A stretch of 64,000 nucleotides of DNA, taken from positions 1 through 64,000 of the forward strand of contig NZ_JAERQZ010000001.1 in assembly GCF_016735515.1 (NCBI RefSeq), in the 5' to 3' direction. Source of the stretch: Piscinibacter sp. HJYY11. Lineage in GTDB: Bacteria; Pseudomonadota; Gammaproteobacteria; Burkholderiales; Burkholderiaceae_C. A program made the position numbers and the translations under genes. Of the stretch, positions 23,566 through 51,873 are shown piece after piece (position 1 is the first letter of the stretch; every line of letters begins with the position of its first letter). Below the pieces are notes generated by a model. The model saw nothing but the letters and a program-made list of their open reading frames with translations. It was not told the origin of the DNA and ran no database searches.

Positions 23566-24021
23566 TCAGCGGAGGGGAAAGCCCCAGGTCATCAGCGACC
23601 AGGTGAGGGCGCTGGAGGCCAGCGACGCCACGCCGGCTGCCATCGTGCACATGAACCATTGGCGCCAGGGGCGTTCCAGCCGGTGGCGAAGCTGCTCGAG
23701 AGGTTGAAGCAGCTGACGACGGGCCGCGGCCATCTCCGTCCCGAAGGCCGCGCGCGCCGACTCGCTCATCGCCTGCGTCTGGAGACGCAGCACGTTCGCG
23801 GTGCTCTCGCGCGTGCGGCGGGCGATGTACTCGGCCGTTGACAGCTTGGCCTTTTCGGTCAGCAGGACCATCTGTCCTTCGAAGTGGGCGAGCTGGTCGG
23901 CCAGGTCGACGCGTGCACGCTCGAGCGCCGGGACCAGGACCTCGACCCTGTCGAGCACCCGCGCCATGTCGCCCAGCATCTCCGCAATCAGGGCCTCGCG
24001 GGCGGTGGGTGGGTGCGACAT
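23566..24021 (-). CDS. StbC/TraM-like conjugation accessory protein
   Basis: A 151-residue protein with a helical, coiled-coil-like middle (MLGDMARVLDRVEVLVPALE, ESTANVLRLQTQAMSESARA) and a C-terminal membrane helix (FMCTMAAGVASLASSALTW). It is the third gene of a leftward operon after an StbB-like ATPase, and its start overlaps the ATPase stop (TGATG). Position and topology match the third gene of stbABC or traKLM operons. The exact role is unknown. Confidence 0.65.
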   Translation of the reverse strand: MSHPPTAREALIAEMLGDMARVLDRVEVLVPALERARVDLADQLAHFEGQMVLLTEKAKLSTAEYIARRTRESTANVLRLQTQAMSESARAAFGTEMAAARRQLLQPLEQLRHRLERPWRQWFMCTMAAGVASLASSALTWSLMTWGFPLR

Positions 24022-25476: not shown

Positions 25477-26043
25477 ATGCACACCCCTCCGCGCGACTTC
25501 GTCTCCGTCGACATGCGTGGCCTGAAGGCCGCGCTGCAGACGCGGTCGCGCGAGAGCGGCCGCAGCGTGTCGGACCTGGTGCGGACCGCCGTGGCCGGAT
25601 GGCTCGGCGCGGCGCATCTCGCCCCATCCGACACGATCCCCGATGCCAGCGACGGACATGCGACCCTGAAGGTGTCGATCCGCCTACATCGCACCGACGT
25701 CGAGCTGCTCGCCGCCCGTGCAAAGGACGCCGGCGTGTCACGAGGCGCCTTGATCCGTGGACTGCTCACCGAGGTCCCCGCGATGACGCAGTCCATGGCC
25801 AGGCCTGCGGACGTTCTCTCAGCGCTCGTGTGTTCCAACGCGCAGGTCGCGGCTCTCGGCAAACACGTCTCCCGGCTCTGCCTTCTTCTTGAACACGGCG
25901 ATGGATTGGCGGCGAGGCAGTACCGCATGCAACTGACAGGACTCGTGGATGAACTGCGTCAGCACCTCAGGCTCACGACGGAGGCGCTCGAGCTCCTGCG
26001 CGGCCGACGCGGCGGCGCGCCCACCCGGACGCGAAGCCCATGA
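25477..26043 (+). CDS. MobC/TraJ-like relaxosome accessory protein
   Basis: A 188-residue protein with an N-terminal DNA-binding-like part (FVSVDMRGLKAALQTRSRES, GRSVSDLVRTAVAGWL) and a C-terminal helical part (NAQVAALGKHVSRLCLLLEH, LTGLVDELRQHLRLTTEALE), the architecture of MobC-type nicking accessory proteins. It overlaps the relaxase by 4 bases. The second half repeats a ribbon-helix-helix-like unit (VSIRLHRTDVELLAARAKDA). Starts at ATG 25477, 37 bp from the oriT repeat. Confidence 0.75.
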   Translation: MHTPPRDFVSVDMRGLKAALQTRSRESGRSVSDLVRTAVAGWLGAAHLAPSDTIPDASDGHATLKVSIRLHRTDVELLAARAKDAGVSRGALIRGLLTEVPAMTQSMARPADVLSALVCSNAQVAALGKHVSRLCLLLEHGDGLAARQYRMQLTGLVDELRQHLRLTTEALELLRGRRGGAPTRTRSP

Positions 26044-26957
26044 GAGGAGACCCCCGCATCGATGGTCTGCTCGTCCAGTGGGGCGACCGGCTGTTCTATC
26101 CCGGCAATCGCAGCCGCGAAAGCTCAGCGCCTCGTCTGACCGGTCAGGCACTCCGCTCGCGTGCGAACCACTTTCGTGAGCGCATCGCCGCGACCGTCGT
26201 GCGCCGAGCGCCCCAGGTCATGGTCAAGGTGACCGGAGGAGGGCGGGGCATGCGGGCCATCGCGGCGCACTTCCGCTACATCAGCAAGAACGGTCGGTTG
26301 GAAGTAGAGGACGAGCAGGGCCACAAGCTTCGCGGGAAGGAGGCCGTGAAACTCATGGTGGAGGACTGGCAGTGGGGTGGCAGCCACATCCAGGAGGCGG
26401 GGAGCCGACGCGAGGCCTTCAACATCATCCTGTCGATGCCGAACGGAACGGACCCGTCGATCGTTCAGCGAGCCGCGCGTGAGTTCGCACAGGGCGAGTT
26501 CGAGGATCACAAGTACGTGATGGTGCTGCATGACCACCAGGCCAATCCCCACGTGCACCTGAGCGTCCGTGCGGAGTCGGTCCACGGCAGGCGCTTGAAT
26601 CCGCGCAAGGCCGATCTGGCGCGATGGCGGGAAACCTTCGCGGAGAAGCTGCGGGGATGGGGGATCGAGGCCGAGGCGTCGCGGCGGGGCGTGCGAGGGC
26701 CGACGACATCGCCGGCTCCGCTTTGGCGCCTCAAGGCGGCGGCAGAAGGGAGGCTGCGCCGCCTCTCGAGCGACAGGCCGACTCAGGCGCCCATGCCGGC
26801 TCACGTGCTCGAGGCGTGGCACGAACTGGCTCGGGCGCTGTCGGGGTCATCGTCTGAAGCCGATCGCCGCCTCGGAGCCCGTCTTCAGCAAGCGCGTGAC
26901 AAGGCGCGTGGGCCTGAGACGCGCGAGGTCGGCCCCAGACCGGTGGGTGGCCGGTGA
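26040..26957 (+). CDS. MOBP-type relaxase
   Basis: A 305-residue relaxase-domain protein. The metal-binding histidines of motif III are visible as VLHDHQANPHVHLSVRA (His164, His166, His171, His173). The segment MVKVTGGGRGMRAIAAHFRY (about residues 61-80) carries candidate catalytic tyrosine and DNA-contact residues. It should nick oriT at 25415 and stay covalently bound to the 5' end. The protein is shorter than TraI of RP4 and lacks a C-terminal primase or helicase. Clear partner of the MobC-like gene. Confidence 0.88.
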   Translation: MRGDPRIDGLLVQWGDRLFYPGNRSRESSAPRLTGQALRSRANHFRERIAATVVRRAPQVMVKVTGGGRGMRAIAAHFRYISKNGRLEVEDEQGHKLRGKEAVKLMVEDWQWGGSHIQEAGSRREAFNIILSMPNGTDPSIVQRAAREFAQGEFEDHKYVMVLHDHQANPHVHLSVRAESVHGRRLNPRKADLARWRETFAEKLRGWGIEAEASRRGVRGPTTSPAPLWRLKAAAEGRLRRLSSDRPTQAPMPAHVLEAWHELARALSGSSSEADRRLGARLQQARDKARGPETREVGPRPVGGR

Positions 26958-27068: not shown

Positions 27069-28016
27069 CTAAGGAGCGAGGCTGGAGGATGGCAGGGAGG
27101 TTTCTTCAGACGGTTCGCGCGTTGATGCGCCGGCCCTGGCCCGCTCCAGGACGAAATCGATGAAGGCGCGCATCGCGCGTGTCTGGTGGCGGTGCGGCGT
27201 GTACAGCAGGTACAGCTGGCTGCCGAAGATGCTCAGCCGGTAGTCGTCGAGCGCGGTGAGCACCTCGCCGCGTTCCACGGCGTCCTGCACCACGTACTGC
27301 GGCACGAAGCCGACGCCGAGGCCTGCGAGGATGGCCTGTCGCATGAACGGATAGTTCTCGGAGATCAGCGTCGGTTCCAGCACGATCTCGTGCCGCTCGC
27401 CGCCGCGATACGCGGACATGCGCGTCTCGCGTCCGTAGACGATGGGCGTTATCAGCGGTGCCGATCGCAATTCCTGCAGCGTCTTCGGCAGGCCATGACG
27501 CGATGCGTAGTCCTGCGAGGCGCACGCGATGTATCGCACTGCACCCATCTCGCGGGCGACCAGCGCCTGAGGCGGCTCGTTCAGCACGCGGATCGCGACG
27601 TCGACCTCGTCGCTCAACAGGTCGTCCAGCCTGTGCTGGAAGTGAACGTGAAGGACGATGCCGGGGTAGAGCCGCTTGAATTCGATCAGCCAGTCGGCCA
27701 TCACCATCTGGCCGTAGCCGCTGGGCACGGCCACACGCACTCGGCCATGCAGGCTGCGCCCGAGATTGGCCACCATCTCGCGGGCCGCGAGCAGTTCGTT
27801 CTGGATCGACAGGCCGTGCTGGTAGAGACGCAGCCCGACCTCGGTCGGTTCGACGCGACGCGTGGTCCGTCGCAGCAGCTGCACCCCCGCCGCCTTCTCC
27901 AGCTGGTTCAGGTGGTAGCTGACGTTTGCGCGCGTCATGTTCAGCTTGCGGGCGGCCTGGCTCAGGTTGCCCGCTTCGATGATTTCGACCAGCAAGGTCA
28001 GTGCGCTGAGGTCCAT
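27069..28016 (-). CDS. LysR-family transcriptional regulator
   Basis: A 315-residue LTTR with the standard N-terminal winged helix (LTLLVEIIEAGNLSQAARKL, NMTRANVSYHLNQLEKAAGV) and a periplasmic-binding-protein-like effector domain (GRVRVAVPSGYGQMVMADWL, AILAGLGVGFVPQYVV). It diverges from the hydrolase gene at 28176 across a palindromic intergenic region, the usual LTTR layout, so it probably controls the degradation genes in response to a pathway intermediate. Confidence 0.92.
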   Translation of the reverse strand: MDLSALTLLVEIIEAGNLSQAARKLNMTRANVSYHLNQLEKAAGVQLLRRTTRRVEPTEVGLRLYQHGLSIQNELLAAREMVANLGRSLHGRVRVAVPSGYGQMVMADWLIEFKRLYPGIVLHVHFQHRLDDLLSDEVDVAIRVLNEPPQALVAREMGAVRYIACASQDYASRHGLPKTLQELRSAPLITPIVYGRETRMSAYRGGERHEIVLEPTLISENYPFMRQAILAGLGVGFVPQYVVQDAVERGEVLTALDDYRLSIFGSQLYLLYTPHRHQTRAMRAFIDFVLERARAGASTREPSEETSLPSSSLAP

Positions 28017-28175: not shown

Positions 28176-29684
28176 ATGAACCTTTCCGCCTTCTTGCGCC
28201 TTGGCGTGCTGCCGGCTGCCGTGCTTCTCACCGCGTGCGGTGGGGACGACGGCAGCGCCGCCGAAACCGATCCGGTCGTGTCCGGCGAGACGCGGCCGCA
28301 CGACACGCGCACCTTCACGATCGCCGCGCTGGATTCGACCGCCGTCTATCCGGACTACGCTGCCGGCCCCGGGGGGCAACACAGCTTCACCGCGGTGACT
28401 GGGTTCGAGGGAAGCAGCCGCTGGGCCGGGGAACTGAACGGTTCCGCCTACCGCATCGAAGTGCCGGCGAACTGGAACGGCGAGCTGGTGATGTACACGC
28501 ACGGCTACCGGGGCACGGGCTCCGCTGTGAGAGTCGACAACCCCTCCATCCGCCGTCACCTGCTGCAACAGGGCTATGCCTGGGCCGCGTCCAGCTACAG
28601 CAAGAACTACTACGACGTGCGCGCCGGCATCGAGGACACCAATGCCCTGGCCCTGGCGTTCAACAGCATCGCCACCGCGAAAGGGCGCACGCTGGCCACG
28701 CCGACGAAGATCTTCATCATCGGCCATTCGATGGGCGGGCACATCGCGGCCGCGGCCGTCGAAGCCGAGACCGTGGCGCAGGCCAGGAACCGGGTCGCCT
28801 ACGCCGGCGCCGTGCCGATGTGCGGCGTGACCGGCGACCTGGCGTTGTTCGACACGTTCGCGGCCATGCAGATCACGGCTCAGGCGGTCGCCGGCTTCGC
28901 CAGCAGCCCGTTGGCGAATCCCGGCTGGTCGTCTGTCGCTCCCCAGGTCAACGCCGCCCTCTGGTCGAGCATGCCGTCGCCTGCCAGCCCCACCGCCCCC
29001 TTCACACCCACGGCACTGGGTGAGAACTATGTGTCCATCCTCAAGCACCTGACCGGCGGTGAGCGTCCCCTGTTCCGCCTGGGCCTGACGATGCCTGGTA
29101 GTTCCTTCGGCTCCTCCTACGGTGTCTTTGGTGGCAATGGCACGGTCACCGGCATCCTCAACAAGTGGGCGACCGACACGACGCGCTTCACTTACACCAT
29201 CGATGGCAATGCGACGGCCAGCGCCGCGATCAATGCGTCGGCACAGCGGGTGAGGGCGGAACCCCTGTCCAACGCGCGCCGCCCCGACGGACTGCGGTGG
29301 GTTCCCAAGGTCAATGGCGAGGTGCGTGTGCCGGTGGTGGCCATCCACACGCTCGGCGACCTGTTCGTGCCCTTCAGCATGATGCAGGTCTACCGTCAGC
29401 GCGCCGAAGCCAAGGGCCGCGGCCACCTTCTCGTGACCCGTGCCATCCGGGGCATCAGCCATTGCGATTTCACCGAGGCAGAACAAAGCGAAGCGTTTGA
29501 CGCGATGGTGCAGTGGGAGAGGACGGGGGTGAGGCCCGCGGGCGACGACATCGTCACACCTTCGGTGGTCGCCGCCCCGAACTTCGGCTGCACCTTCACG
29601 CGCGCGCCCGTTCCCGGCACGGACTCGGCCTTCGTCGTCGGACTGCGCGGTCAGATCACCGGCGCCGGCGCCACCTGTCCGTGA
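28176..29684 (+). CDS. lipoprotein alpha/beta hydrolase, copy 1
   Basis: A 502-residue lipoprotein: signal LGVLPAAVLLTACGG with the lipobox cysteine, then a Thr/Ser-rich linker. The hydrolase domain has THGYRGTG as an oxyanion-region candidate, the nucleophile elbow IIGHSMGGH near residue 190, an acid candidate in HTLGDLFVPFS and the histidine in GISHCDF. It probably sits on the outer membrane or cell surface and attacks an ester. The next gene is a close paralogue. I prefer ATG 28176, which has GGAG upstream, over the in-frame ATG at 28164. Confidence 0.8.
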   Translation: MNLSAFLRLGVLPAAVLLTACGGDDGSAAETDPVVSGETRPHDTRTFTIAALDSTAVYPDYAAGPGGQHSFTAVTGFEGSSRWAGELNGSAYRIEVPANWNGELVMYTHGYRGTGSAVRVDNPSIRRHLLQQGYAWAASSYSKNYYDVRAGIEDTNALALAFNSIATAKGRTLATPTKIFIIGHSMGGHIAAAAVEAETVAQARNRVAYAGAVPMCGVTGDLALFDTFAAMQITAQAVAGFASSPLANPGWSSVAPQVNAALWSSMPSPASPTAPFTPTALGENYVSILKHLTGGERPLFRLGLTMPGSSFGSSYGVFGGNGTVTGILNKWATDTTRFTYTIDGNATASAAINASAQRVRAEPLSNARRPDGLRWVPKVNGEVRVPVVAIHTLGDLFVPFSMMQVYRQRAEAKGRGHLLVTRAIRGISHCDFTEAEQSEAFDAMVQWERTGVRPAGDDIVTPSVVAAPNFGCTFTRAPVPGTDSAFVVGLRGQITGAGATCP

Positions 29685-29697: not shown

Positions 29698-31212
29698 ATG
29701 AGAGTGCCTTTCGTTCTTTCACTCCGCGTGCTGGTGCCCGCGCTGCTTCTCACCGCGTGCGGTGGGGGCGGTGCGAGCTCCAGCGCCGGGGAATCGGAAC
29801 CTGTCGTCTCCGGCGAAACGCGGCCGCAGGACGCGCGCAGCTTCACCGTCGCGGCACTGGATTCGACGGCTGTCTATCCGGACTACCAGCCCGGCTCGGG
29901 CGGGGTGCCCAGCTTCACGGCCGTGCCTGGCTTCGAGGGCAGCAGTCGCTGGGGCGGAGAACTGAACGGTGCTGCCTATCGCATCGAAGTGCCGTCGAAC
30001 TGGAACGGCGAACTGGTGATGTACACGCACGGCTACCACGGCACGGGGGCGGTGTTGACGGTCGAGACCCCCTCGATCCGGCATCACCTGCTGCAACTGG
30101 GCTATGCCTGGGCCGCGTCCAGCTACAGCAGGAACTACTACGACGTGCGGGCCGGCATCGAGGACACCAATGCCCTGGCCCTGGCGTTCAACAGCATCGC
30201 CGCCGCGAAGGGGCGCGCGCTGGCCACGCCGTCGAAGATCTTCATCATCGGCCATTCGATGGGCGGACACATCGCGGCCGCCGCCGTCGAAGCGGAGACG
30301 GTGGCGCAGGCCAGGCATCGGGTCGTGTACGCCGGCGCCGTGCCGATGTGCGGAGTGACCGGGGACATGGCGCTGTGGGACACCTTTGCGGCAATGCAGA
30401 TCGGTGCTCAGGCGGTTGCCGGGTTCGCGAGCCGCCCCCTGCCAAACCCGAACTGGTCGTCGATCTCGCCCCAGGTCAATGCAGCCCTCTGGTCGAGCTT
30501 TCCGTCGCCGGCCACGCCGACCGCGTCCGCCACACCGACGGTGCTGGGTGAGCACTATGTGTCCATCCTCAAGCACCTGACGGGTGGCGAGCGCCCGTTG
30601 TTTCGCCTGGGACTGGCCGCTCCGGGCAGCTCGCTGGCTCTGGCATTCGGCGTCTTCGGCGACGACGGCACGATCGGCGGCATCCTCAACAAGTGGGGAA
30701 CCGACACGACGCGCTTCTCGTACACCGTCGAGGGCAACCCGGCAGTGAGCGCCGCCATCAGCGGGCGGGTGCAGCGGGTCAGCGCCGAGCCGCAGGCGAA
30801 TGCGCGCCGCAGCGACGGATTGCGCTGGATGCCCAGGGTGAACGGCGAGGTGCAAGCGCCGGTCGTGGCCATCCACACGCTGGGCGACCTGACGGTGCCG
30901 TTCAGCATGATGCAGATCTACCGCCAGCGCGCCGACGCGAAAGGGAACGGCGATCGCCTCGTCACCCGCGCCATTCGCGGCATCCACCATTGCGATTTCA
31001 CGGTGGCCGAACAGAACGAAGCGTTCGACGCCATGGTCCAGTGGGTGAGGACCGGCGTGAAACCATCGGGCGACGACGTCGTCACGCCTTCGGTGGTGGC
31101 AGCGCCGCACTTCGGTTGCACGTTCTCGCGTGCGCCCGTGGCTGGCGTCGATGCAGATTCAACCATCGCCTTGAGAGGCCTGGTGACCGCATCGGGCGCC
31201 ACGTGCCCTTGA
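29698..31212 (+). CDS. lipoprotein alpha/beta hydrolase, copy 2
   Basis: A 504-residue paralogue of the preceding protein, alike along its whole length (FTVAALDSTAVYPDY, THGYHGTGAV, FIIGHSMGGHIAAAAVEAE, HTLGDLTVPFSMM, GIHHCDF). The lipobox LLTACGG shows it is also a lipoprotein. It follows copy 1 by 13 bases and is in the same operon. The main differences lie in the N-terminal linker and near residues 300-330, which could reflect different substrates. A tandem duplication is the simplest origin. Confidence 0.8.
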   Translation: MRVPFVLSLRVLVPALLLTACGGGGASSSAGESEPVVSGETRPQDARSFTVAALDSTAVYPDYQPGSGGVPSFTAVPGFEGSSRWGGELNGAAYRIEVPSNWNGELVMYTHGYHGTGAVLTVETPSIRHHLLQLGYAWAASSYSRNYYDVRAGIEDTNALALAFNSIAAAKGRALATPSKIFIIGHSMGGHIAAAAVEAETVAQARHRVVYAGAVPMCGVTGDMALWDTFAAMQIGAQAVAGFASRPLPNPNWSSISPQVNAALWSSFPSPATPTASATPTVLGEHYVSILKHLTGGERPLFRLGLAAPGSSLALAFGVFGDDGTIGGILNKWGTDTTRFSYTVEGNPAVSAAISGRVQRVSAEPQANARRSDGLRWMPRVNGEVQAPVVAIHTLGDLTVPFSMMQIYRQRADAKGNGDRLVTRAIRGIHHCDFTVAEQNEAFDAMVQWVRTGVKPSGDDVVTPSVVAAPHFGCTFSRAPVAGVDADSTIALRGLVTASGATCP

Positions 31213-31263: not shown

Positions 31264-32262
31264 ATGCAATTTCGCCCCCACCCACGACGCCATCTGATGC
31301 ACGCCGTCGCGTGCATGGTCTTGGCCCTCGGCCTGCCCGTGCAGGCCCAAACGACCGCGTTCCCGACCAAGCCGGTGCGCATCGTCGTGCCGTTCCCGCC
31401 AGGTGGCGCGACCGACATCCTGGCACGTCTCCTGGCCGACAAGCTGGCGCCTGCGCTCGGTAAGCCGGTGATCGTCGACAACAAGGCGGGCTCTTCAGGG
31501 GTGCTCGGGACCGACATCGTGGCCAAGTCGCCCGCCGATGGCCACACCCTGGTGCTGAGCCTCAGCAACTCGCTCCTGACCAATCAGTTCCTCTACGCGA
31601 GGATGCCCTATGAGATCTCACGCGACCTGACTCTCGTCTATCAGATCGCGACCGGGCCGGTGGTGCTCCTCGTGCATCCGAGCATTCCCGCCAACACGGC
31701 GCAGGAACTCCTGAAACACGTCAGCGCGAAGAAGGGGAAGCTCTCCTACGGCTCATGGGGCATCGGCTCGTATGCGCATCTCGCCGGCTCCCACATGAGC
31801 GCCACGCAGAAGGCCGAGATGTCGCACATCCCCTACAAGGGCGAGGCGGCGATGATCCAGGATCTCCTTGGCGGACAGCTCGACATGGCGTACGCCAGCG
31901 CGCTGCAGGCCAAACCCCATATTGAAGCCGGGAAGCTCAAGGCGATCGGGGTCACCGGCGAAAGCCGCATGGCAACGCTGCCCAACGTGCCCACGCTTCG
32001 GGAGCAAGGTTTGACGGACGAGGCGTATCGCGTCACCGGGTGGCTGGGCATTGCCGTTCCATCGGGGACGCCTCCCGCGGTGGTTCGTCGCATCGCTGCT
32101 GAAGTGCGCGCGGCCGTGCAGCTGCCCGATGTGCGGGACCGGATCGCCGCCATGGGATTCGAGGTGCGGGACAGTTCACCCGAAGCCTTTGCAGCGGTCT
32201 ACAAGAAGGAGCTTCCGATCTGGGAGCGCCTGATCAAGCAGTCCGGGGCCACGCTCGAATGA
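31264..32262 (+). CDS. Bug/TctC-family periplasmic solute-binding protein
   Basis: A 332-residue protein with signal peptide (MHAVACMVLALGLPVQAQ) and the Bug hallmarks PVRIVVPFPPGGATDILAR, VDNKAGSSGVLGTD, SHIPYKGEAAMIQDLLGGQL and LPNVPTLREQGL. Such proteins bind carboxylates and aromatic acids, for uptake by TctAB or for sensing. No tctAB permease genes lie nearby, as is common for Bug proteins in Burkholderiales. TAAGGAG precedes ATG 31264. A strong hairpin follows. Confidence 0.92.
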   Translation: MQFRPHPRRHLMHAVACMVLALGLPVQAQTTAFPTKPVRIVVPFPPGGATDILARLLADKLAPALGKPVIVDNKAGSSGVLGTDIVAKSPADGHTLVLSLSNSLLTNQFLYARMPYEISRDLTLVYQIATGPVVLLVHPSIPANTAQELLKHVSAKKGKLSYGSWGIGSYAHLAGSHMSATQKAEMSHIPYKGEAAMIQDLLGGQLDMAYASALQAKPHIEAGKLKAIGVTGESRMATLPNVPTLREQGLTDEAYRVTGWLGIAVPSGTPPAVVRRIAAEVRAAVQLPDVRDRIAAMGFEVRDSSPEAFAAVYKKELPIWERLIKQSGATLE

Positions 32263-32450: not shown

Positions 32451-33605
32451 ATGAAAAGTCGCCGAAGCTTCCTCAGAAGTGCCGTCGGACTCACTGCTGG
32501 TGCGTCGCTTCATGCCGTCGCGTCCGCACAGCTTGTCGGCATGAGTCGCACCCCGGTGCTCCTTGGTTCGTCCCTGGCGTTGACCGGCGTGGTGGCCAGC
32601 GGCGGCATCGAACACACCAAAGGCATTCGGGCAGCGGTCAATGACGTGAACCGCGCAGGTGGCCTCAACGGCAGAGAGCTGAAGGCGGTCTTCGTCGACG
32701 ACGGGTTCGTGCCTGCGCGTTCTGCCGAGAACATCAAGAAGCTGCTCGAGGACGGTGCACTTGCGTTTGCGAGTCTGATGGGCACCGCCAACACCTCCGC
32801 ATGCATCACCACGCTCGAAGCTGCGGGCGCCTCGCTGGTGGGTCCCGTCACCGGCGCGAGTTCGGTGCGCCGAGCGGAGGTGAAGTCGTTGTTCCACATT
32901 CGTCCGTCCTATGCCGACGAGATCAGGCGCCTGGTCGAGCAGATGCAGACCCTGGGCATGCGGGACATCGCGGTCGTCTACCAGGACAACGCGTTGGGGA
33001 AGGAGTCGTTCGCCGATGCGGAACGAGCGTTTGCCGCGGCCGGAATCCGCTGGCCCATTGCGGTTTCGCTGTCGCTTGATGGCGCCAACGCAGACAGCAC
33101 TGCGCGGGCCGTCCTGGGCGCCAAGGCGGGCGCGGTGTTGTTGCTCACCACCGGCACTGCTTCGACCGACTTCGTCCTGGCCTTGAGGAAGGCGGCACCG
33201 TCGATGTCGATCGTTGGGTTGTCCATCACCTTCACGGACATTCCGCGGCTGGGTGCCCACATCCAAGGTCTGGCGTGTTCATCGATCTTTCCGACGCCAC
33301 GGTCGACCAAGCACGTGCTGATTCGCGAGTACCAGGCGTCGATGCGGGCCGCAGGATTGACGGCTGGCGTCGGCACCAGCTCCGTCGAAGGCTACATCAA
33401 CGCACGAGTGGCCATTGAGGGCATTCGGCGCGGCATGTCGATGGGCAAGTCCTTCTCGCGCGAGTCCGTGCGAAGCGGGCTCATCAGCCTCCGGAATTTC
33501 CGGGTCGGGGACTTGTCCGTCGACTTCCGGTCGGGTCCGCCATGGGTGTCGCCCACGCCTGTGTCGCTCGCCGTCTACGGTCACGACGGTGTGTTGCGAG
33601 CCTGA
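32451..33605 (+). CDS. ABC transporter substrate-binding protein (branched-chain amino acid/aromatic type)
   Basis: A 384-residue protein with a Tat-like signal (KSRRSFLRSAVGLTAGASLH) and a type I periplasmic-binding fold: VLLGSSLALTGVVASGGIEH, VNDVNRAGGLNGRELKAVF, DDGFVPARSAENIKKLLED and FASLMGTANTSACITTLEAA. This is the Leu/Ile/Val-binding type that often serves aromatic acids or amides in catabolic loci. No permease or ATPase genes are adjacent. CAAGGAG precedes ATG 32451. Ligand unknown. Confidence 0.88.
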   Translation: MKSRRSFLRSAVGLTAGASLHAVASAQLVGMSRTPVLLGSSLALTGVVASGGIEHTKGIRAAVNDVNRAGGLNGRELKAVFVDDGFVPARSAENIKKLLEDGALAFASLMGTANTSACITTLEAAGASLVGPVTGASSVRRAEVKSLFHIRPSYADEIRRLVEQMQTLGMRDIAVVYQDNALGKESFADAERAFAAAGIRWPIAVSLSLDGANADSTARAVLGAKAGAVLLLTTGTASTDFVLALRKAAPSMSIVGLSITFTDIPRLGAHIQGLACSSIFPTPRSTKHVLIREYQASMRAAGLTAGVGTSSVEGYINARVAIEGIRRGMSMGKSFSRESVRSGLISLRNFRVGDLSVDFRSGPPWVSPTPVSLAVYGHDGVLRA

Positions 33606-33701: not shown

Positions 33702-34874
33702 ATGAATGACGCTGGTGCACTCGCGGGCGTGCGGGTCTTGGACCTTTCACGCGTGCTGGCCGGGCCGCTGTCGGCGCAGACCCTGGGGGACCTCGGGGCC
33801 GACGTCATCAAGGTCGAACGGCCGGGCGTGGGGGACGACTCCCGCCACTGGGGACCCTGGTACTGGCGAAGTGATGGCAGCACGGAGTCGGCCTGGTTCC
33901 ACTGTGCCAACCGCAACAAGCACTCCGTCACCGCCGACCTGGCCACTGCAGAGGGGCAGGACCTGGTGCGACGGCTGGCCGCCGAGGCGGACGTTCTGGT
34001 CGAGAACTACAAGGTGGGCGATCTGGCGCGCCACGGTCTTGCGTACGAGGACCTGCGACAGGTCAACCCGCGGCTCATCTACTGCTCGATCACGGGCTAC
34101 GGACAGGACGGCCCGTCGGCACACAAGCCGGGGTACGACTTCGTGTTCCAGGGCGAGAGCGGCCTGATGAGCGTCACGGGCGAACCCGACAACCAGCTGG
34201 GTGGCGGTCCACAAAAGGTGGGTGCTCCGGTGGTGGACTTCGTCACCGGCCTGTATGCCACGGTCGCGATTCTCGCGGCTCTGCAGGCGCGGCATCGAAC
34301 GAACCGCGGCCAGTTCGTCGACATCGCGTTGCTGGACTGCGCGGTCGCCATGGGCATCAACCAGTCCGCGTCCTACCTGATGACGGGCATGGTGCCGCGT
34401 CGGCGTGGCAACCGACACCCCGACGTGGTGCCCTATCAGACCTTCGAGGTTGCAGACGGTCACATCACCCTGTGCGTCGGCAACGATGGGCAGTGGCGCA
34501 GGCTCTGCAGCGCGGTAGGTCGTGGCGATCTTGGCGAAATGCCTCAGTACGCGACGGGCGGTGACCGCGCCTTGCACGGCGACGCCATCTCGGACGCCCT
34601 CGGCGCTGCACTGCGCCTGCAGACCGTTGCCTACTGGCTGGACACGTTGGGTGCCCAGGGCATTCCATGCGGGCCGATCAACGACTACGCGCAGGCATTC
34701 GCGTCGCCTCAGGCCCGGCACCGCGGCCTGCGCCAGTTGATCAGCACCGCTTCGGGCGAAGACGTGCCGACGGTAGCCAGTCCGATCCGGCTGTCGGATA
34801 CGCCGGTGCAGTACCGCCACGTGGCCCCCGGTCTTGGCGAGCACAACGGATCGGGCTGGAAAACGCGCGGCTGA
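33702..34874 (+). CDS. CaiB/BaiF family (class III) CoA transferase
   Basis: A 390-residue protein with class III CoA-transferase features: GVRVLDLSRVLAGPLSAQTL, DVIKVERPGVGDDSR, RNKHSVTADLATAEGQ, the GYDFVFQGESGLMS segment carrying the catalytic aspartate, and GAPVVDFVTGLYATVAILA. It would transfer CoA onto a carboxylic acid released by upstream hydrolysis, preparing it for beta-oxidation-like degradation. Donor and acceptor are unknown. It follows the binding-protein gene by 96 bases. Confidence 0.9.
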   Translation: MNDAGALAGVRVLDLSRVLAGPLSAQTLGDLGADVIKVERPGVGDDSRHWGPWYWRSDGSTESAWFHCANRNKHSVTADLATAEGQDLVRRLAAEADVLVENYKVGDLARHGLAYEDLRQVNPRLIYCSITGYGQDGPSAHKPGYDFVFQGESGLMSVTGEPDNQLGGGPQKVGAPVVDFVTGLYATVAILAALQARHRTNRGQFVDIALLDCAVAMGINQSASYLMTGMVPRRRGNRHPDVVPYQTFEVADGHITLCVGNDGQWRRLCSAVGRGDLGEMPQYATGGDRALHGDAISDALGAALRLQTVAYWLDTLGAQGIPCGPINDYAQAFASPQARHRGLRQLISTASGEDVPTVASPIRLSDTPVQYRHVAPGLGEHNGSGWKTRG

Positions 34875-35032: not shown

Positions 35033-35929
35033 ATGTTCAACATCACAGACAGCTTGCGTCACATTGCCAAGGCAGCCGTTCTCGCGGCCACCTTGACCGC
35101 TTCTGCGCTCGCGGGCGCGCAAACCAACCCCTACGCCAAAGGGCCTGACCCGACGGTCGCGAACCTGGAGGCCGCGACCGGCACGTTCGCCGTGCGCTCC
35201 ACCACCATCTCGCGTTACAGCGTGTCCGGCTTCGGCGGGGGCACGGTGTACTACCCCACCACGACTGGCTCCTATGGGGCGATCGCCGTCACGCCCGGCT
35301 TCAGCGCCTACCAGTCAGCGATTAGCTGGCTGGGGCCACGTCTCGCTTCACGCGGGTTCGTGGTGATCACCATCGACACCCTCACCACGTCCGATCAACC
35401 CGACAGCCGTGCACGCCAGCTCAAGGCTGCGCTTGATCGACTGGTCACGATGAGCCGCACCCCCGGCAACGTGCTCTACAACAAGGTTGACGCCACGCGG
35501 TTGGCTGTGGCCGGTCACTCGATGGGCGGCGGCGGCACGCTGGTCGCGGCGCGCGACAACCCGCAGTTGAAGGCGGCCATCGCCCTGGCCCCGTGGAGCT
35601 CGACCAACAATTTCTCGACGATTCGCGTGCCCACGCTGATCATCGGCGGCCAGAACGACACCACCGCGAGCGTATCGCGCTACTCGATTCCGTTCTACGA
35701 CAGCATCTCGACGGGTGTCCCGAAGGCCTACCTCGAACTGCGCGGCGCTGACCACCTCTTCCCGCAAAATTCGTCGTGGTATCCGTTCGTGGGCCGCTAC
35801 ATGATCACGTGGTTCAAGCGCTTCGTCGACAACGACACCCGCTACAGCCCGTTCCTGTGCGGCGCTCAGCGAGACATCGACATCCGCAGCACCCGGGTGT
35901 CGGGCTACCGCGGCAACTGTCCGTACTGA
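35033..35929 (+). CDS. PETase/cutinase-like polyester hydrolase
   Basis: A 298-residue secreted alpha/beta hydrolase that aligns from memory over its whole length with Ideonella sakaiensis PETase: mature start QTNPYAKGPDP, TVYYPTTTGSYGAIAVTPGF, the elbow GHSMGGGG and the end RFVDNDTRYSPF. The triad is Ser163, Asp209, His241, with aromatic clamp residues Phe90 and Trp188. Differences from IsPETase: His replaces the Trp before the nucleophile, and the extra disulphide near the active site is absent (GGQND, HLFPQ), so it is closer to type I cutinases. The C-terminal disulphide (Cys276-Cys296) is kept. AGGAGACATC precedes ATG 35033. Confidence 0.88.
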   Translation: MFNITDSLRHIAKAAVLAATLTASALAGAQTNPYAKGPDPTVANLEAATGTFAVRSTTISRYSVSGFGGGTVYYPTTTGSYGAIAVTPGFSAYQSAISWLGPRLASRGFVVITIDTLTTSDQPDSRARQLKAALDRLVTMSRTPGNVLYNKVDATRLAVAGHSMGGGGTLVAARDNPQLKAAIALAPWSSTNNFSTIRVPTLIIGGQNDTTASVSRYSIPFYDSISTGVPKAYLELRGADHLFPQNSSWYPFVGRYMITWFKRFVDNDTRYSPFLCGAQRDIDIRSTRVSGYRGNCPY

Positions 35930-36078: not shown

Positions 36079-37332
36079 TCAAGATCCATGCTGCACAGGC
36101 GCGAGCCTGAGTCCTGCCGCATAGCGCTCGAGGTTGCGGGCGGCGTTTGCCATTTGTGATGGCGCGTGCTCTTCGGCAGCGAGGGCGCGAGCGGCCTGGG
36201 TCAACTCTTCGAGCCGTTCGCGGACAAGTTGCATCGCCACGTCAGCGTCCGTCGGCAAAGCGACATGCCGCGTCAGCCCGAACTCCGGCCCCGCGCGCAA
36301 CCGGCTGCCCGCGCGAAGGGGGAGCAGCATGAGCGCTTCTCCTATCGGTTTGAGCACCGTGGCCATAACTACGATGGCCACGGAAGCAAAGGACTTGGCG
36401 ACGTCGCCGACCTCCGTGCTACTAAAGGTGAACTGCAACATGCGCATCGCCAATCCGTACACCTCATTGAAGTGCGCGGCTACGCGGTGGGTATACGGAT
36501 CCTCGATCAAGGACACGCCGTACTCAGCCTCGAAACCCTCGACCCGGGTCGTTGGATTCTCTGCGACGATGCGCACAGGTGCGAACGCGTCGTCGGAGGC
36601 TGCAACCTCGGCCTCGAACTCCGCCAGCACCCGCAGGAACAAGCCGTAGTGACAGTTCATATCTTCGCGGCTTGTTCCTTCACCTTGCCCAACGATCATT
36701 TGGATCGCTGCCGCAGCAGTTTTCCTGTCAGCGACCTTGATCAGGTCGGGGAAGTCAACGACGTCTTGGCCGATCTGTCGGTCATCATTACCCACAAACA
36801 ACTGGGCTTCGGGAATGGTCTGAAAGCCGCTCAGGATTTGCCCATAAAGTTCCCCAACCGTGACGTCCTGGCTTGTAGGTGACTGATCCTTTGGAAGCCC
36901 TAAGGTTTGCGCCACGTCCTCTGGGGACACGTGGGCCGGCAGTTCGTACATGATGAAGCGCTTCAGGCAGTCGGCACCGAATGGCGCGAGCTTTAAGGGC
37001 AAGTTCATGGCGTAGTAGGTTGCTGGCTGGGGGAAGCGTGGGCGCTGGTAGTACGGCATGCCGCCAATGGCTGCAAGCAGATTCCACACCTGCGCCAGAT
37101 GCAACATCTCCTCTGCCGCGATCGCGTACAGCTGGCTGGCCCATGACCGCACCTTCTGTTGCTGCTGCCAGGTCATGCCACCCTCGGACAAGTCCTGTTT
37201 GAGGCTGAAAGCAGCAAACAGATACGTGCAGAGCAGGCCGTGCTCCAATTCGCAGGCATCGCTTAACAGCGACAACAACTGCGACCGCGAGGCAACTGGT
37301 TCCGCAGTGGCGCGGAAGAGCACCTCGCTCAT
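36079..37332 (-). CDS. VioB/PF12902-type ferritin-like protein
   Basis: A 417-residue protein whose first ~230 residues form the ferritin-like domain seen in VioB-type iminophenylpyruvate dimer synthases: LLSDACELEHGLLCTYLFAA, then YAIAAEEMLHLAQVWNLLAA and PYYQRPRFPQPATYYAMNLP. Candidate metal ligands are Glu30, His31, Glu75 and His78. The remaining ~190 residues are helical and unfamiliar. No signal peptide. It is the last gene of a five-gene operon and overlaps the GMC gene by 4 bases. It may perform oxidative chemistry on a product of its neighbours; the substrate is unknown. Confidence 0.75.
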   Translation of the reverse strand: MSEVLFRATAEPVASRSQLLSLLSDACELEHGLLCTYLFAAFSLKQDLSEGGMTWQQQQKVRSWASQLYAIAAEEMLHLAQVWNLLAAIGGMPYYQRPRFPQPATYYAMNLPLKLAPFGADCLKRFIMYELPAHVSPEDVAQTLGLPKDQSPTSQDVTVGELYGQILSGFQTIPEAQLFVGNDDRQIGQDVVDFPDLIKVADRKTAAAAIQMIVGQGEGTSREDMNCHYGLFLRVLAEFEAEVAASDDAFAPVRIVAENPTTRVEGFEAEYGVSLIEDPYTHRVAAHFNEVYGLAMRMLQFTFSSTEVGDVAKSFASVAIVVMATVLKPIGEALMLLPLRAGSRLRAGPEFGLTRHVALPTDADVAMQLVRERLEELTQAARALAAEEHAPSQMANAARNLERYAAGLRLAPVQHGS

Positions 37333-38972
37333 ACCTCCAGCTCCCGAGCGATGGCTGGGACCGCCCGCAGCGCCAGGGCGGCCACGGTAAGGGTGGGATT
37401 GGCAGTTCCACATGTGGGAAACGCACTGCCGCCGACGATGAACAAATTGCGGTGATCGTGCGCACGGCTGTCCACATCTACGACCGAGGAAGTGGGGTCG
37501 GTGCCCATGCGGCAAGTTCCCATGATGTGGTTGGCGGCTGAATAGCGATCGTCTGCCGGAATCGTGATGTCAGTCGCCCCCAGTTTCTCGAACAACGTCC
37601 GGATAACACTTCGCCCCATCGCGAAGCCACGCCGGTTGTAGTCACTGAGTTGAAAACGAAGTTCTGGCCGTGGAACGCCAAGGCGGTCCAACTCAGACGA
37701 CAGCACCACGCGATTGTCGGCGTCGGGTAGTGTCTCGGTGGAGTAGCTTAGTCTGAATTGCCGGGTCAATACGTCCCGCGTACGTTCGCGCAATGCGTCA
37801 CCGAATAGCCTCTCGTGCTTGATCAGGTTCAACGCTGTGGCGTAGGGGCCCTGGAGCAGTCCCCATCCGTCATTGCCGACAGACATTCGAAACGCCGCGC
37901 CGTGTGCCCGAAAGTGACCGTCGCGGAAAGCGTCGATGCCCGAGGTCGTAGGCGGGCCGCGGAACGGATACACAGGAAACGGAAGCAGCGCCGCGCCTTG
38001 CCCTTGCAGGTGATCCATCAAGTTTCGGCCCACCTGATCGCTTGAGTTGGCCACGCCATTCGGAAATACGTCCGTGCGGGACATCAGTAGCAGCTTCGCC
38101 GACTCGATGGCGTGCGCTGCCACTACCACGACTCGGGCGAACACTTCATGATCTGCGCCGTCCCAGGTGCGGTAGGTCACGCCCGTGGCACAGCCATCGG
38201 CGCCGATGTGCACGCGTGTGACGACCGACTGTGAGCGAATCTGGACACCGGCTTTGCGAGCCTTATCGAGGTGCACGGTGGCATCATATTTTGCGCCGAT
38301 CGGACAGATGGGGTCACACGTGGAGTTTCCGGCGCAAGGGGGCCGTCCATCGTAGGGCTGGGAGTTGCGCGCCTGCGGCGTCGACATGATGCGAACCTCG
38401 CGCTCATGAATGACGATACCGTCTAGCAGCGGCTTAAGGATCGTGTCGCCGTAGCACGGCCAGATCTGGCTCATTGGGTATGGTGCGGAGCGCCAGCCAC
38501 CCAGGTAGTTGGCCCATTCGTCATGGTTTCCCGAGACACCCAGCTCGGCTTCGGCCTGAACATACCAAGGCTCCAAATCGTCATAACTCAGCGGCCAATC
38601 GATGCCCACACCAAAATTCGACTTCATGCGAAAGTCGCTCGGAATGAGGCGCGGCACGTTTCCGCGCCAGTGCCACGTGGCACCACCGTAACGCCGCTGG
38701 TAGGTCGCCTTAAACTTGTCTTGGCCGGGTTGCACGTAGTAGTCCGTCGCGTCGTCCGGACTTGGTGCGAAGTGGTCACCGTCGCGGCCGCGATAGGGCG
38801 AGCCCATGCTTTTCTTCGGGGCGGACACGTAGGCCTTCACCAGATCTAGTCTCGAAGGCCCCTCCTCGCCGGCTTCCAGGATTAAGATCCGAGCGCGCTC
38901 ATTGAGCTTGCTCGCGAGGATGCCTCCGACAACTCCCGCACCGACGATCACAATGTCGAAAACCTCGCTCAT
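37329..38972 (-). CDS. GMC family FAD-dependent oxidoreductase
   Basis: A 547-residue protein with the N-terminal FAD motif (FDIVIVGAGVVGGILASKL, residues 5-23), the GMC segment YQRRYGGATWHWRGNVPRLI, a CAGNSTCDPICPIGAKYD cysteine cluster seen in gluconate/sorbitol dehydrogenase-type enzymes, and the C-terminal HIMGTCRMGTDPTSS and GTANPTLTVAAL motifs. It would oxidise an alcohol and pass electrons on. The gene directly upstream is a PF12318-like small subunit, so the two likely form a dehydrogenase complex. No signal peptide is seen. Confidence 0.9.
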   Translation of the reverse strand: MSEVFDIVIVGAGVVGGILASKLNERARILILEAGEEGPSRLDLVKAYVSAPKKSMGSPYRGRDGDHFAPSPDDATDYYVQPGQDKFKATYQRRYGGATWHWRGNVPRLIPSDFRMKSNFGVGIDWPLSYDDLEPWYVQAEAELGVSGNHDEWANYLGGWRSAPYPMSQIWPCYGDTILKPLLDGIVIHEREVRIMSTPQARNSQPYDGRPPCAGNSTCDPICPIGAKYDATVHLDKARKAGVQIRSQSVVTRVHIGADGCATGVTYRTWDGADHEVFARVVVVAAHAIESAKLLLMSRTDVFPNGVANSSDQVGRNLMDHLQGQGAALLPFPVYPFRGPPTTSGIDAFRDGHFRAHGAAFRMSVGNDGWGLLQGPYATALNLIKHERLFGDALRERTRDVLTRQFRLSYSTETLPDADNRVVLSSELDRLGVPRPELRFQLSDYNRRGFAMGRSVIRTLFEKLGATDITIPADDRYSAANHIMGTCRMGTDPTSSVVDVDSRAHDHRNLFIVGGSAFPTCGTANPTLTVAALALRAVPAIARELEV

Positions 38973-38975
38973 TGT

Positions 38976-39404
38976 TCAGTTTTCCGGTGGGTACTTCCAG
39001 TAGCCGAAGTAGCCGCCGGACAGCGCTGGCGGATGCGCCCCGATGACTGACCAGATGTGCGACCGGAAGTACTGCTCCGGTGGCCCGAACTTCCAGTTGT
39101 CGCCGTCAGCAAACGCCGACGTGTACCAAAGCAGGATGATCTGCTGGGCTAGCGCACCGAAGTCTGACGACTCCACAATCTGCTGGCGGATGTCCATTTC
39201 GAGATCGGTAGAGGTGCTCCGAAGTCGCGCGAACAATTCGAGCAGCTCATCTATGCGCGCCCCGAAGAGTTCGGCGCGCAACCGCTGCAGGTAGGGCGCC
39301 GCAAGGTCAGCCTGGGCATCCACTCCTGCCAGATGTCTGGACAGGTCGCGAAAGCAGGCTGCTGCGGTCGCAGCGTCCATCGTCGATCTGCGTGCGGGGC
39401 TCAT
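38976..39404 (-). CDS. PF12318-type small subunit (sorbitol/gluconate dehydrogenase-like)
   Basis: A 142-residue protein whose C-terminal half (LAQQIILLWYTSAFADGDNW, then FRSHIWSVIGAHPPALSGGY) matches the membrane-bound FAD-containing D-sorbitol dehydrogenase small-subunit family. It lacks the Tat signal common in periplasmic relatives, so the complex here is probably cytoplasmic. It lies 3 bases upstream of the GMC gene and overlaps the previous gene by 4 bases. Confidence 0.8.
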   Translation of the reverse strand: MSPARRSTMDAATAAACFRDLSRHLAGVDAQADLAAPYLQRLRAELFGARIDELLELFARLRSTSTDLEMDIRQQIVESSDFGALAQQIILLWYTSAFADGDNWKFGPPEQYFRSHIWSVIGAHPPALSGGYFGYWKYPPEN

Positions 39405-40273
39405 AAAGGCCGCAAGAGGTCGCGCTCCTCCAGCCCCAATGCCGTCATGGTGTCGTTGAGCAGGTCGTAGGTGTTTGCCTCAATCGCCTTCAGGCCCTGG
39501 ACCATGCCCCAGAAGATCTCCAGCGCCGCCTTGCCTTCCGCAGACTTTCCGGCCGCGACCAGTGCGTCTTGCAACGCAGCACGCTCGCCGTGGTCAGCCA
39601 CTCGCGCGACTACCGGATCGCTGGGAATGGGGTCGGACCGCACGAGCTGCACAAGCTTCTGGTTGGCGTCACGGTAGCCATCTTGATTGGCTAGATCGAT
39701 GATGACCCCATCATGTCCCGCGCCGATGTCGACTTGCCCCTCGTACACCGCCTTCGCGACAAGGTCGTGGCCGCCAAGGAACTCGACACGGGCGAAGTGC
39801 GTGAACGGGTGCACGCCGAGTTTCTGCTTAAGCGAGAACGCGTTCACCAGGAAATTGGACGTCGAGTACGGCACGCCGTAGCCGATGCTGCGCCCCTTGA
39901 GCTTGTCTGGCAGCTGGGGGGCGTCCTTGCGTAGAGCGGTATCTGCCCGCGTGTATATCTGGGCGAAGTAATTGTCGCCGACGACGCCGTCAATGGTCCG
40001 GAGCGCGATGGCGATGGACGCGATGTCGCTGCCATTGGGTCGACGGCGTGCAAAGACATAGCCCAGCGGATTCATGAGCGCGAGCTCGCTGTCGCCGGCA
40101 AGCAACTGGTCGATTTGCTTATTGACCTCCACGCCGGGCAGCACCTTGATCGTCGTATTGGAGCCCATCTCTTTTGCGACCACCGACGCGAAGACCTCTA
40201 CGTTGCGGTGCACTTCCGCCGCAGATCGATGCTGCGTGATCCAGGGGTAGTACGACATGCGATATGTAGGCAC
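39401..40273 (-). CDS. PhnD-like solute-binding domain protein without signal peptide
   Basis: A 290-residue protein with the PhnD/ABC phosphonate-binding fold (YYPWITQHRSAAEVHRNVEV, LPGVEVNKQIDQLLAGDSEL, GYGVPYSTSNFLVNAF, VAKAVYEGQVDIGAGHDGVI). Unlike transport proteins it starts MPTYRMSYYPW with no signal, so it is expected in the cytoplasm, and no transporter genes are present. It may act as a ligand-binding sensor or chaperone for the operon. The ligand could be a phosphonate or other small anion. Confidence 0.75.
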   Translation of the reverse strand: MPTYRMSYYPWITQHRSAAEVHRNVEVFASVVAKEMGSNTTIKVLPGVEVNKQIDQLLAGDSELALMNPLGYVFARRRPNGSDIASIAIALRTIDGVVGDNYFAQIYTRADTALRKDAPQLPDKLKGRSIGYGVPYSTSNFLVNAFSLKQKLGVHPFTHFARVEFLGGHDLVAKAVYEGQVDIGAGHDGVIIDLANQDGYRDANQKLVQLVRSDPIPSDPVVARVADHGERAALQDALVAAGKSAEGKAALEIFWGMVQGLKAIEANTYDLLNDTMTALGLEERDLLRPL

Positions 40274-40322
40274 GGCGGATCCTCCTCAATGCGTGGCCAG
40301 AATGGGTTGGTGCTTCTTCTTC

Positions 40323-41942
40323 CTAGAACAAGTCAAGTTGGGACAGCCGGACCTTGATCATTCCAGCCGGCACGCTCGTCTCCCAAGGCTGGACGAGGCG
40401 GGGAGCCGGCGCGTATTCATCAAGTTCGGCTTGTCGGGCCCGACTCCAGTCATACAGAAATACGCGTTGCAGGTATTCCGCGACTTCTTCGTCGTGAAAG
40501 ATGATGCTTGCGTCGCGGTTCCAACTGGCACCGGCGTTGCTCCAGTTGTGACTACCGAGCAAGGCAACGCGACCGTCCACGATGATCCCTTTGGTATGAC
40601 AAAGGTTATCGATCCTGATGTTGTTGATATCAAAGCCGAAGTCCTGCGCGGCCTCCAGGTCGTCACGCTCACCATAGCGGAAGAGAATCTTGACGTCGCG
40701 ACCAACCCGCTGGTGGGTGAGCAAAGCCTCCAGCAGTCTGGTGTAGCCGGCTGTTCGCGGCTCGGCGGTCTTGAACGTTTGATTCTGAAAGTAGATCGTT
40801 GAGTCGCGCGATGTCGCAGATTCAATAAGTTCGAGCGCACGCTCAAGGTAGTTGTCAGGGGACAATACCGGTCGAATATCTAGAGCCCGATTGATCTGCA
40901 GTGGCTCAAAGTAGCGTACTGGGACCCTTGGCCGCCGACGCTCCATGAACAGGCTTGTGTTTGCAATCCACATTTCCGGATCCGCAAGATCAACAAGCGC
41001 ATCCGGCCCCGCGGCCGCCTCTGCGTCACGGCGATCCTGAAGCAAGTGCTCTTCGAAGATGTTGGCGAGACGCTCGTTTTTAATGATGACGTGCCACTCG
41101 CGGTTGTACTCGCTCAGCAACGGCGGCGTTTGGTCTCCGTTGTTCAGGGGATCGAACGGCGGCTGGTTCGATGACTGCCAACTTCCCGACGACAGCCAGG
41201 TTTCGATGCGGTCTCTAACGGCCACCTTTATGTGATACGAGCTGTCGAAGATGCCCCTGGGATTGACGCATCGCCCAAACGCCGACCTCAGCACGGCCCA
41301 CGCATGCTCCAGTCGATCGCCAAAAGCCTCCTGAAGCATGCGCACGGATTCGGCGTCCTTGATGTCGCCGGCTTTCGTGCCTTGGCCAATGTTCGAGCCT
41401 TTCTGAACTACTAGCGACATGGCTTCCAGGCGGCGCGCGAGTTCCAGCGAAGCTTCGATGATGTGTGGGGCGCTGTACTCGTACATACCGACCGTCAGAC
41501 GCTTCTCGGTTCTCGCCAAGAACTGCTTTAGATTGGGCCATCCTGCATCGGGGCTAAGGTGCACGATAGCCTGCATCGGCTCGCTGAATCGATCCAATCT
41601 GAACTTCTTGGCGGTTCTCTCGGTGTAGTTGTGCCCACGTTCGCAGGTGTCGGGCGGCGAGGCAGCGGCCAGCACGTCCTTGAAACTGGCGTTGGCGACA
41701 TCGAGGGTGAATCCCTCGATGTGCATCGGTAAAGGCGATGTTCCGTGTTGGTGGAGCGTGGCAAGCGGTAGCTTTTGCCGCACCACCACGACAACGGCAG
41801 GTTCCTTGGTCAACATTCCGTCTTTGACCCGATAGCCCGCGCGCACGCGCAGAACATCGGGTCGCTGCCCAAGCGATTCCGCCGCAAGGTCGACGGCCGC
41901 CGGCAGCCCTTGCGTGCACTCCGCGAGAACCTTGGTCACCAT
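40323..41942 (-). CDS. phospholipase D family protein with two HKD motifs
   Basis: A 539-residue protein with both catalytic motifs complete: HIKVAVRD (His237, Lys239, Asp244) and HTKGIIVD (His449, Lys451, Asp456), each followed by the expected GSxxW/GSHNW serine segment. The first ~110 residues are a separate domain (VRAGYRVKDGMLTKEPAVVV) seen at the N-terminus of other hydrolases in such gene neighbourhoods. No signal peptide. It could cleave phospholipids or nucleic acids, since both occur in this superfamily. It is the first gene of the five-gene operon, and 206 non-coding bases lie upstream. Confidence 0.88.
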   Translation of the reverse strand: MVTKVLAECTQGLPAAVDLAAESLGQRPDVLRVRAGYRVKDGMLTKEPAVVVVVRQKLPLATLHQHGTSPLPMHIEGFTLDVANASFKDVLAAASPPDTCERGHNYTERTAKKFRLDRFSEPMQAIVHLSPDAGWPNLKQFLARTEKRLTVGMYEYSAPHIIEASLELARRLEAMSLVVQKGSNIGQGTKAGDIKDAESVRMLQEAFGDRLEHAWAVLRSAFGRCVNPRGIFDSSYHIKVAVRDRIETWLSSGSWQSSNQPPFDPLNNGDQTPPLLSEYNREWHVIIKNERLANIFEEHLLQDRRDAEAAAGPDALVDLADPEMWIANTSLFMERRRPRVPVRYFEPLQINRALDIRPVLSPDNYLERALELIESATSRDSTIYFQNQTFKTAEPRTAGYTRLLEALLTHQRVGRDVKILFRYGERDDLEAAQDFGFDINNIRIDNLCHTKGIIVDGRVALLGSHNWSNAGASWNRDASIIFHDEEVAEYLQRVFLYDWSRARQAELDEYAPAPRLVQPWETSVPAGMIKVRLSQLDLF

Positions 41943-51112: not shown

Positions 51113-51126
51113 CGTGGCTCCGGAAG

Positions 51127-51822: not shown

Positions 51823-51873
51823 GGGTAGGCTCCTTGGTGAGGCTGGAGGAGAAAGGGGCACGGCCATGTACGT

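What the first reader, a model, noticed from the sequence alone, without database searches (positions are those of the whole stretch)
35033..35929. PETase-like polyester hydrolase carried between the transfer genes of a conjugative element
The secreted protein has Ser163-Asp209-His241, the GHSMGGGG elbow, an aromatic clamp (Phe90, Trp188) and a mature N-terminus closely like I. sakaiensis PETase, but with His before the nucleophile and no second disulphide. Type I/II intermediates are informative for how PET activity evolved. It lies with two secreted esterases, binding proteins and a CoA transferase between relaxase and T4SS genes, so the trait could move between bacteria.
Basis: partly seen in the sequence, partly recalled or inferred. 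Interest (0 to 1): 0.82.

Follow-up and report, generated by a model that had tools for sequence, protein, structure and literature searches.

The report
Polyester-cutting enzyme gene among conjugation genes
A bacterium related to the plastic-eating Ideonella carries, besides four other relatives elsewhere in its chromosome, an extra secreted enzyme of the PETase family inside a set of DNA-transfer genes; the enzyme belongs to a side branch that fits neither standard PETase type and has an unusually altered active site, so it is a good test case for how these enzymes evolved, although neither its activity nor its mobility has been shown.

The parts
35033..35929 (+). PETase/cutinase-family secreted serine hydrolase (P0001), class X; Ser163-Asp209-His241, Phe90/Trp188 clamp, Tyr217, Leu242, Thr211, Cys276 and Cys296
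35033..35122 (+). probable signal peptide (residues 1-30, ...ALAGAQ), read by eye; AF2 puts a helix at 4-28
   Evidence: no signal-peptide predictor was available
35519..35521 (+). codon of the nucleophile Ser163 within GHSMGGGG
   Evidence: counted from the ATG
33702..34874 (+). family III CoA-transferase (PF02515, 433 bits; nearest NCBIfam model succinate--glutarate CoA-transferase, 420 bits, below its cut-off of 750)
32451..33605 (+). periplasmic binding protein (PF13458)
31264..32262 (+). Bug/TctC-type receptor (PF03401); nearest solved relatives Bug27 (205 bits) and a periplasmic terephthalate-binding protein (198 bits)
29698..31212 (+). secreted or lipoprotein-type alpha/beta-hydrolase; Ser187, Asp397 and His431 invariant in an alignment of 47
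28176..29684 (+). tandem paralogue of the previous (76% identical)
27069..28016 (-). divergent LysR-type regulator
26040..26957 (+). VirD2/MobA-type relaxase (PF03432, 46 bits); listed plasmid relatives 52% over 70% or 43% over 90%
24021..24725 (-). ParA-like ATPase by eye; no Pfam hit
21214..22704 (+). SSB (21214-21747) and DUF932 (21844-22704) genes of the transfer backbone
44928..46919 (-). VirD4-type coupling protein (PF02534)
46916..56992 (-). type IV secretion genes: VirB11, VirB10, VirB9, VirB8, VirB5, VirB6, VirB4, VirB3, a VirB2-like small gene, VirB1-like SLT gene
   Evidence: VirB2-like 56162-56458 by position and by match to relatives
36079..41942 (-). second cargo block of different composition (GC 0.58-0.62): ferritin-like, GMC oxidoreductase, phosphonate-type binding protein, PLD-like protein

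Best explanation
A secreted cutinase-like polyester hydrolase of the PETase family. Shown by sequence and model: the fold, the Ser-His-Asp triad, the aromatic clamp and one cysteine pair. Inferred: after export it binds polyester chains in a surface cleft and cuts ester bonds by the usual acyl-enzyme route. With His before the nucleophile, Tyr in place of the gate His214, Thr at 208 and Leu at 238, the clamp tryptophan is probably less mobile while the pocket behind it is wider; I therefore expect good activity on flexible aliphatic or mixed polyesters (PCL, PBS, PBAT, cutin-like) and little on PET. Inferred for the cassette: a LysR protein controls genes whose products cut the polymer and its oligomers, bind the released acids in the periplasm and load a dicarboxylate with CoA. 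The cassette is cargo in a conjugation gene set resembling those of conjugative plasmids; the gene belongs to a lineage typical of this genus and was probably gained from a near relative, not from afar.
Against: No activity data. The cassette as a unit was found nowhere else: esterase relatives in 7 of the 8 other genomes that have one lacked it, save a weak LysR match in one and TctC matches in another, so co-function rests on position. A weak terminator-like site (34992-35007) lies between CoA-transferase and PETase genes, but such sites are as frequent in shuffles (4 found, mean 5.3). The Leu and Tyr changes point in opposite directions for PET. The cleft list was drawn up after I had seen the departures, so its p of 0.006 is not a clean test.
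Confidence: 0.62

Rival explanations
1. A true PET hydrolase: the gene adds PET depolymerisation to a host that already has IsPETase-like enzymes, and the cassette esterases act as an MHETase stand-in with a terephthalate receptor.
For: Same genome carries two type IIb genes (one 81% over 89% to a P. sakaiensis PETase record). The TctC protein's second-best solved relative is a terephthalate-binding protein (198 bits). Foldseek ranks MHETase first for the esterase model by E-value (3.6e-11) and a family member is named o-phthalyl amidase (P0205, 54%).
Against: TM-scores to MHETase are only 0.33-0.38. The esterases have no PF07519 match. Bug27 scores higher than the terephthalate receptor. None of the cassette genes is a ring-cleavage gene. 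Tyr at 214.
Confidence: 0.12
2. A lipase/esterase-like generalist whose natural role is plant cutin or suberin, or storage-polyester fragments, with synthetic polyesters only accidental.
For: PETase-family enzymes are cutinases by origin (established knowledge, not tested here); CoA-transferase nearest to a dicarboxylate type and a Bug-type receptor would suit diacids from cutin or suberin.
Against: Nothing here distinguishes it from the best explanation except substrate; overlaps with it.
Confidence: 0.2
3. Decaying passenger: a redundant duplicate in a stranded conjugation relic, drifting without function.
For: Four other family genes in the genome; changes at seven otherwise invariant columns; no tyrosine or serine recombinase near.
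Against: ORF intact, triad and cysteine pair kept, GC3 0.853 within the genome's range; the same changes are in P0002, 92% identical, from another source, so the lineage persisted after acquiring them.
Confidence: 0.06

Closest known systems
IsPETase and other type IIb PETases (Joo et al. 2018 scheme)
   Same: fold, triad, clamp Trp, mature N-terminus, 18-residue 133-150 segment, C-terminal cysteine pair
   Different: His162 for Trp159, Leu242 for Ser238, no C203-C239 pair, loop one residue shorter, Tyr217 for Ser214; 51-54% identical (53.7% to the P. gummiphilus plasmid copy; IsPETase structures)
Type I cutinases/PET hydrolases (Thermobifida cutinases, PHL7, PET40)
   Same: His before nucleophile, one cysteine pair; 51-58% identical in structure alignments
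   Different: class X has 18 instead of 13-15 residues at 133-150 and mostly 13 instead of 11-12 in the loop; P0001 has Leu at 238 and Tyr at 214
BbPETase/BurPL (7cwq) and CtPL variants (8ian, 8ibi, 8ibj)
   Different: BbPETase has Trp159, the second cysteine pair and His214; CtPL has His at that site by the name of its variant
Reconstructed PETases (8etx-8eu1; 8eu0 is titled Ancestral PETase)
   Same: best sequence matches in the PDB, 342-344 bits; 8eu0 62% in structure alignment
   Different: shorter 133-150 segment and loop in the synthetic row P0062, which I take to be of this series
Class X tandem pair of the same genome (C1:888473-890498)
   Same: 71 and 65% identical, same segment lengths, His159, no second cysteine pair
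   Different: His214 and Phe238 kept; not in a transfer gene set
Conjugative plasmids with VirB/VirD4 and VirD2-like relaxase
   Same: gene content and nearly the order of the transfer block; a 105-kb contig of G114 differs by exchanging LPD7/OmpA and VirB5/VirB6
   Different: VirB4 at most 44% in 19 other genomes, VirD4 and relaxase below 60% in plasmids; here inside a 5.06 Mb contig

Membership tests
PETase/cutinase family (PF12740) | profile match over gathering score | tested here: met
   364.2 bits against 28, residues 29-297
PETase/cutinase family (PF12740) | Ser-Asp-His triad, GxSMGGGG elbow, clamp Trp | tested here: met
PETase/cutinase family (PF12740) | C-terminal disulphide | tested here: met
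   Cys276 and Cys296 aligned with the family pair; the bond itself not observed
PETase/cutinase family (PF12740) | polyester hydrolysis | not testable with these tools
   needs assay
Type I PETase | His at 159 and no second disulphide | tested here: met
   His162; Gly206 and Phe243
Type I PETase | no extended beta8-alpha6 loop | tested here: not met
   13 residues against 11 (64 of 65 type I rows) and 14 in the IsPETase-like reference
Type I PETase | Phe/Tyr at 238 | tested here: not met
   Leu242; Phe in 49 of 51 core class X rows and 58 of 65 type I rows, Leu in 4
Type II PETase | second disulphide C203-C239 | tested here: not met
Type II PETase | three-residue extended loop | tested here: inconclusive
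   two extra residues, not three; 35 type II rows themselves have 11
Type III PETase | GHSQG box, no pi-stacking clamp | tested here: not met
   GHSMG and Phe90/Trp188 present; definition from PMC12442448 passages
BdeA (NCBIfam NF051441 equivalog) | score over curated cut-off | tested here: not met
   364.1 against 520
   28.7 bits, far below PF12740, though over its own cut-off of 21
Conjugative element | relaxase, coupling protein, type IV secretion set | tested here: met
Integrative conjugative element | site-specific recombinase in or beside the element | tested here: not met
   no PF00589 match on C1 nearer than 227812 and no PF00239 match in the genome; DDE enzymes not searched
Integrative conjugative element | attachment-site repeats at its ends | not tested
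   ends not defined; no tRNA in the window
MHETase/tannase family (for the two esterases) | PF07519 profile match | tested here: not met
   not among hits at E <= 0.001
MHETase/tannase family (for the two esterases) | same fold with lid | tested here: inconclusive
   first by Foldseek E-value, low TM; many folds tie in VIA

The most novel reading that the evidence does not exclude
Class X is a surviving pre-disulphide branch of the line that led to IsPETase: the segment 133-150 and the loop lengthened first, the second disulphide and Trp159/Ser238 came later, and the element copy is an independent experiment at the tryptophan gate (Tyr214) travelling with its own ester-catabolic cassette. Early, late and remodelled forms then sit side by side in one genome. 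(A genus-mate's pair with His159, the class X loop length and the second cysteine pair, could be either a further step or a sign that the pair was lost in class X.)
Probability: 0.22. Interest if true: 0.78.

Novelty: new variant of a known kind. Interest (0 to 1): 0.52.

Why it matters
The type I/II scheme ties loop, disulphide and cleft residues together. A clade that separates them, in a genus that includes Piscinibacter gummiphilus and in a genome that also holds type IIb genes, lets the order and effect of each change be tested in closely related natural proteins. P0001 adds a natural third state (Tyr) at a gate position described as strictly His outside IsPETase. If the cassette does move, polyester use could spread with it.

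Full report

Five family genes in one genome. A search of the window's own assembly (C1 5,061,406 and C2 556,868 bases) gives five places: P0001; a tandem pair at C1:888473-890498 (71 and 65%); and a pair at C1:2190171-2194209 (51% each). The last two have Trp before the nucleophile and the second cysteine pair; the first of them matches IsPETase structures with 520 bits and a P. sakaiensis PETase record at 81% over 89%. Among 11 genomes of the genus, 7 have family members at E <= 1e-50; class X genes are in 6 (G000, G212, G638, G641, G642, G643), the G643 pair looking broken. The seventh, G637, has six places, of which the four fetched are type IIa (three) and IIb (one). Among 250 genomes of the family 6 match at E <= 1e-60: G000 and G212 have class X, G053 type IIb, G218 and G241 type I, and G062 a divergent type I-like protein with Tyr before the nucleophile. 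In 399 genomes sampled from the order only the window's own matches at E <= 1e-70 (the genus-mates with matches are not in its result, so they were not in that sample). The place of the plasmid hit H3 fits G638:C2, so I infer that the genus is that of Piscinibacter gummiphilus.

Neither type I nor type II. In 249 distinct domains taken from the best 120 hits of each of two searches and 22 loci, with the genome's own genes, I scored residue 159, the cysteines 203/239, the length of segment 133-150 and of the loop 237-250 (IsPETase numbers). The 65 type I rows have His, no second cysteine pair, 13-15 and 11 (one 12). The 129 type II rows have the pair and 18, the loop being 14 in 82, 11 in 35 and 13, 15 or 16 in 12. 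P0001 is one of 51 rows with His, no pair, 18 and 13; four more rows without the pair and with 18 differ in residue 159 or loop. Type definitions are from Joo et al. 2018 (PMC5785972, passages). With 55 rows classed X the full-column FastTree made X one clade (0.986), type II one clade (0.97) and the two sisters (0.927). The sampling follows two queries, so types I and IIa are thin.

How firm is the branching. With trait columns removed, 45 representatives gave a core X clade of 17 of 21 X rows (96*), and core X plus type II at 85, with one X-like row on the type II side. A careful tree of 39 rows, without four stray X-like rows and the synthetic sequence, kept X as one clade (7 rows, 99/90*) within a proteobacterial group (100/99*) but left its place open; AU tests reject neither X with type II (p 0.556) nor X with proteobacterial type I (p 0.558). 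With five rows added, X (9 rows) is a clade at 99/95* and stands beside 23 of 25 type II rows at 88/77; the AU values are 0.513 and 0.471. The two type II rows left out are a G637 pair with His159, a 13-residue loop and the second cysteine pair, whose own place is open; joining it to X is not rejected either (p 0.47). So: class X is a real clade; 'intermediate' is a hypothesis favoured by the shared segment lengths, and loss of the disulphide in class X remains possible.

A remodelled cleft. P0001 and its 92% relative P0002 share seven changes at 112 columns invariant in the other 49 core class X rows: positions 84, 88, 93, 181, 214, 238 and 256. Four (88, 93, 214, 238) are in my cleft list of 20 positions, 15 of which are among the 112; Fisher p 0.006, but the list was drawn up after I had seen the changes. 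Thr at 208, where other core rows have Ile or Val, is also shared. The same count for single rows P0003, P0004, P0012, P0025 and the genome's first tandem gene gave 2, 0, 0, 0 and 0 departures. His214 is described as strictly conserved outside IsPETase (PMC10080609, passages); Tyr occurs in 3 of 249 rows (P0001, P0002, P0053). The F-to-L change at 238 is one that raised PET activity by over 60% at 60 C in an engineered CtPL already carrying three changes (PMC10991172, passages); Leu there is not unique, being in 11 of 249 rows.

The transfer genes. RadC, SSB, DUF932, a ParA-like ATPase (by eye), a relaxase and a VirB/VirD4 series are present. VirB4 matches 20 of 300 genomes of the order, own included, at no more than 44% outside it, and a 105-kb contig of one of them keeps nearly the same order of transfer genes, with two neighbour swaps. 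VirD4 and relaxase have plasmid relatives, all below 60%. Neither a tyrosine recombinase near nor any serine recombinase was found. I therefore call it a conjugation gene set of unproven mobility, perhaps an integrated plasmid or a relic.

Verdict. A real, well-read gene in a known family; a new variant because it breaks the features that define the standard types and carries a rare gate residue; interest moderate, as activity, mobility and branching order are open.

Noticed in passing
window 1-19650: Array of small ORFs, nearly all on the plus strand (two on the minus), separated by attC-like repeats (17 copies of an 87-nt unit, up to 25 of a 41-nt core), i.e. an integron cassette array ending just before the conjugation genes; GC jumps from 0.57 to 0.67 at 20 kb. 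No tyrosine integrase near. attC identity judged by eye.
   Followed up: partly
L011 19848-20000 against window 1-153: The far end of contig C1 carries the same kind of array in opposite orientation, and its last 153 bases are the reverse complement (98%) of the first 153 of the window: an inverted repeat at the contig ends, or an assembly fault; the integron integrase may lie in the gap.
   Followed up: partly
L022 (NZ_CP136337.1, 147492-178271): A Piscinibacter gummiphilus SBD 7-3 plasmid (typed non-mobilizable by MOB-suite) carries an IsPETase-type gene with the Ser214/Ile218 pair, 96-97% identical over 261 residues to copies in genomes G212 and G053, with two IS1071 genes on one side and IS91 and Tn3 transposase genes on the other: perhaps a better case of a moving PETase than this window.
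   Followed up: partly
G637:C1:5526255-5528147 (L151, L155): Pair with His159, second cysteine pair and a 13-residue loop (HFCPQ...) like class X; branches apart in the trait-free tree. A mixed form that bears on the order of changes.
   Followed up: partly
L009 10145-14228: Two type IIb genes of the window's genome with a dihydroorotase-like gene and one further gene between them (by eye); the P. gummiphilus plasmid also has pyrC next to its PETase gene.
   Followed up: partly
G000:C1:3453565-3454974 (L023): One of five tannase-family genes of the genome; nearest solved structure is MHETase (230 bits), so an MHETase-like step in this host is possible.
   Followed up: partly
window 36079-41942: Second cargo block of lower GC: ferritin-like, GMC oxidoreductase, phosphonate-type binding protein and a PLD-domain protein in one line; function not pursued.
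   Followed up: no
window 57283-63785: MmeI-type restriction-modification protein near a helicase and a T5orf172/MUG113 protein: probable defence cargo.
   Followed up: no
G643:C1:570658-572503 (L150, L156): The class X tandem pair of this genus-mate looks truncated or out of frame in its 3' part.
   Followed up: no
G000:C1:3277006-3278448 (L118/L119): Third copy of the cassette esterase elsewhere in the genome (61%), without matches to the other cassette genes around it.
   Followed up: partly
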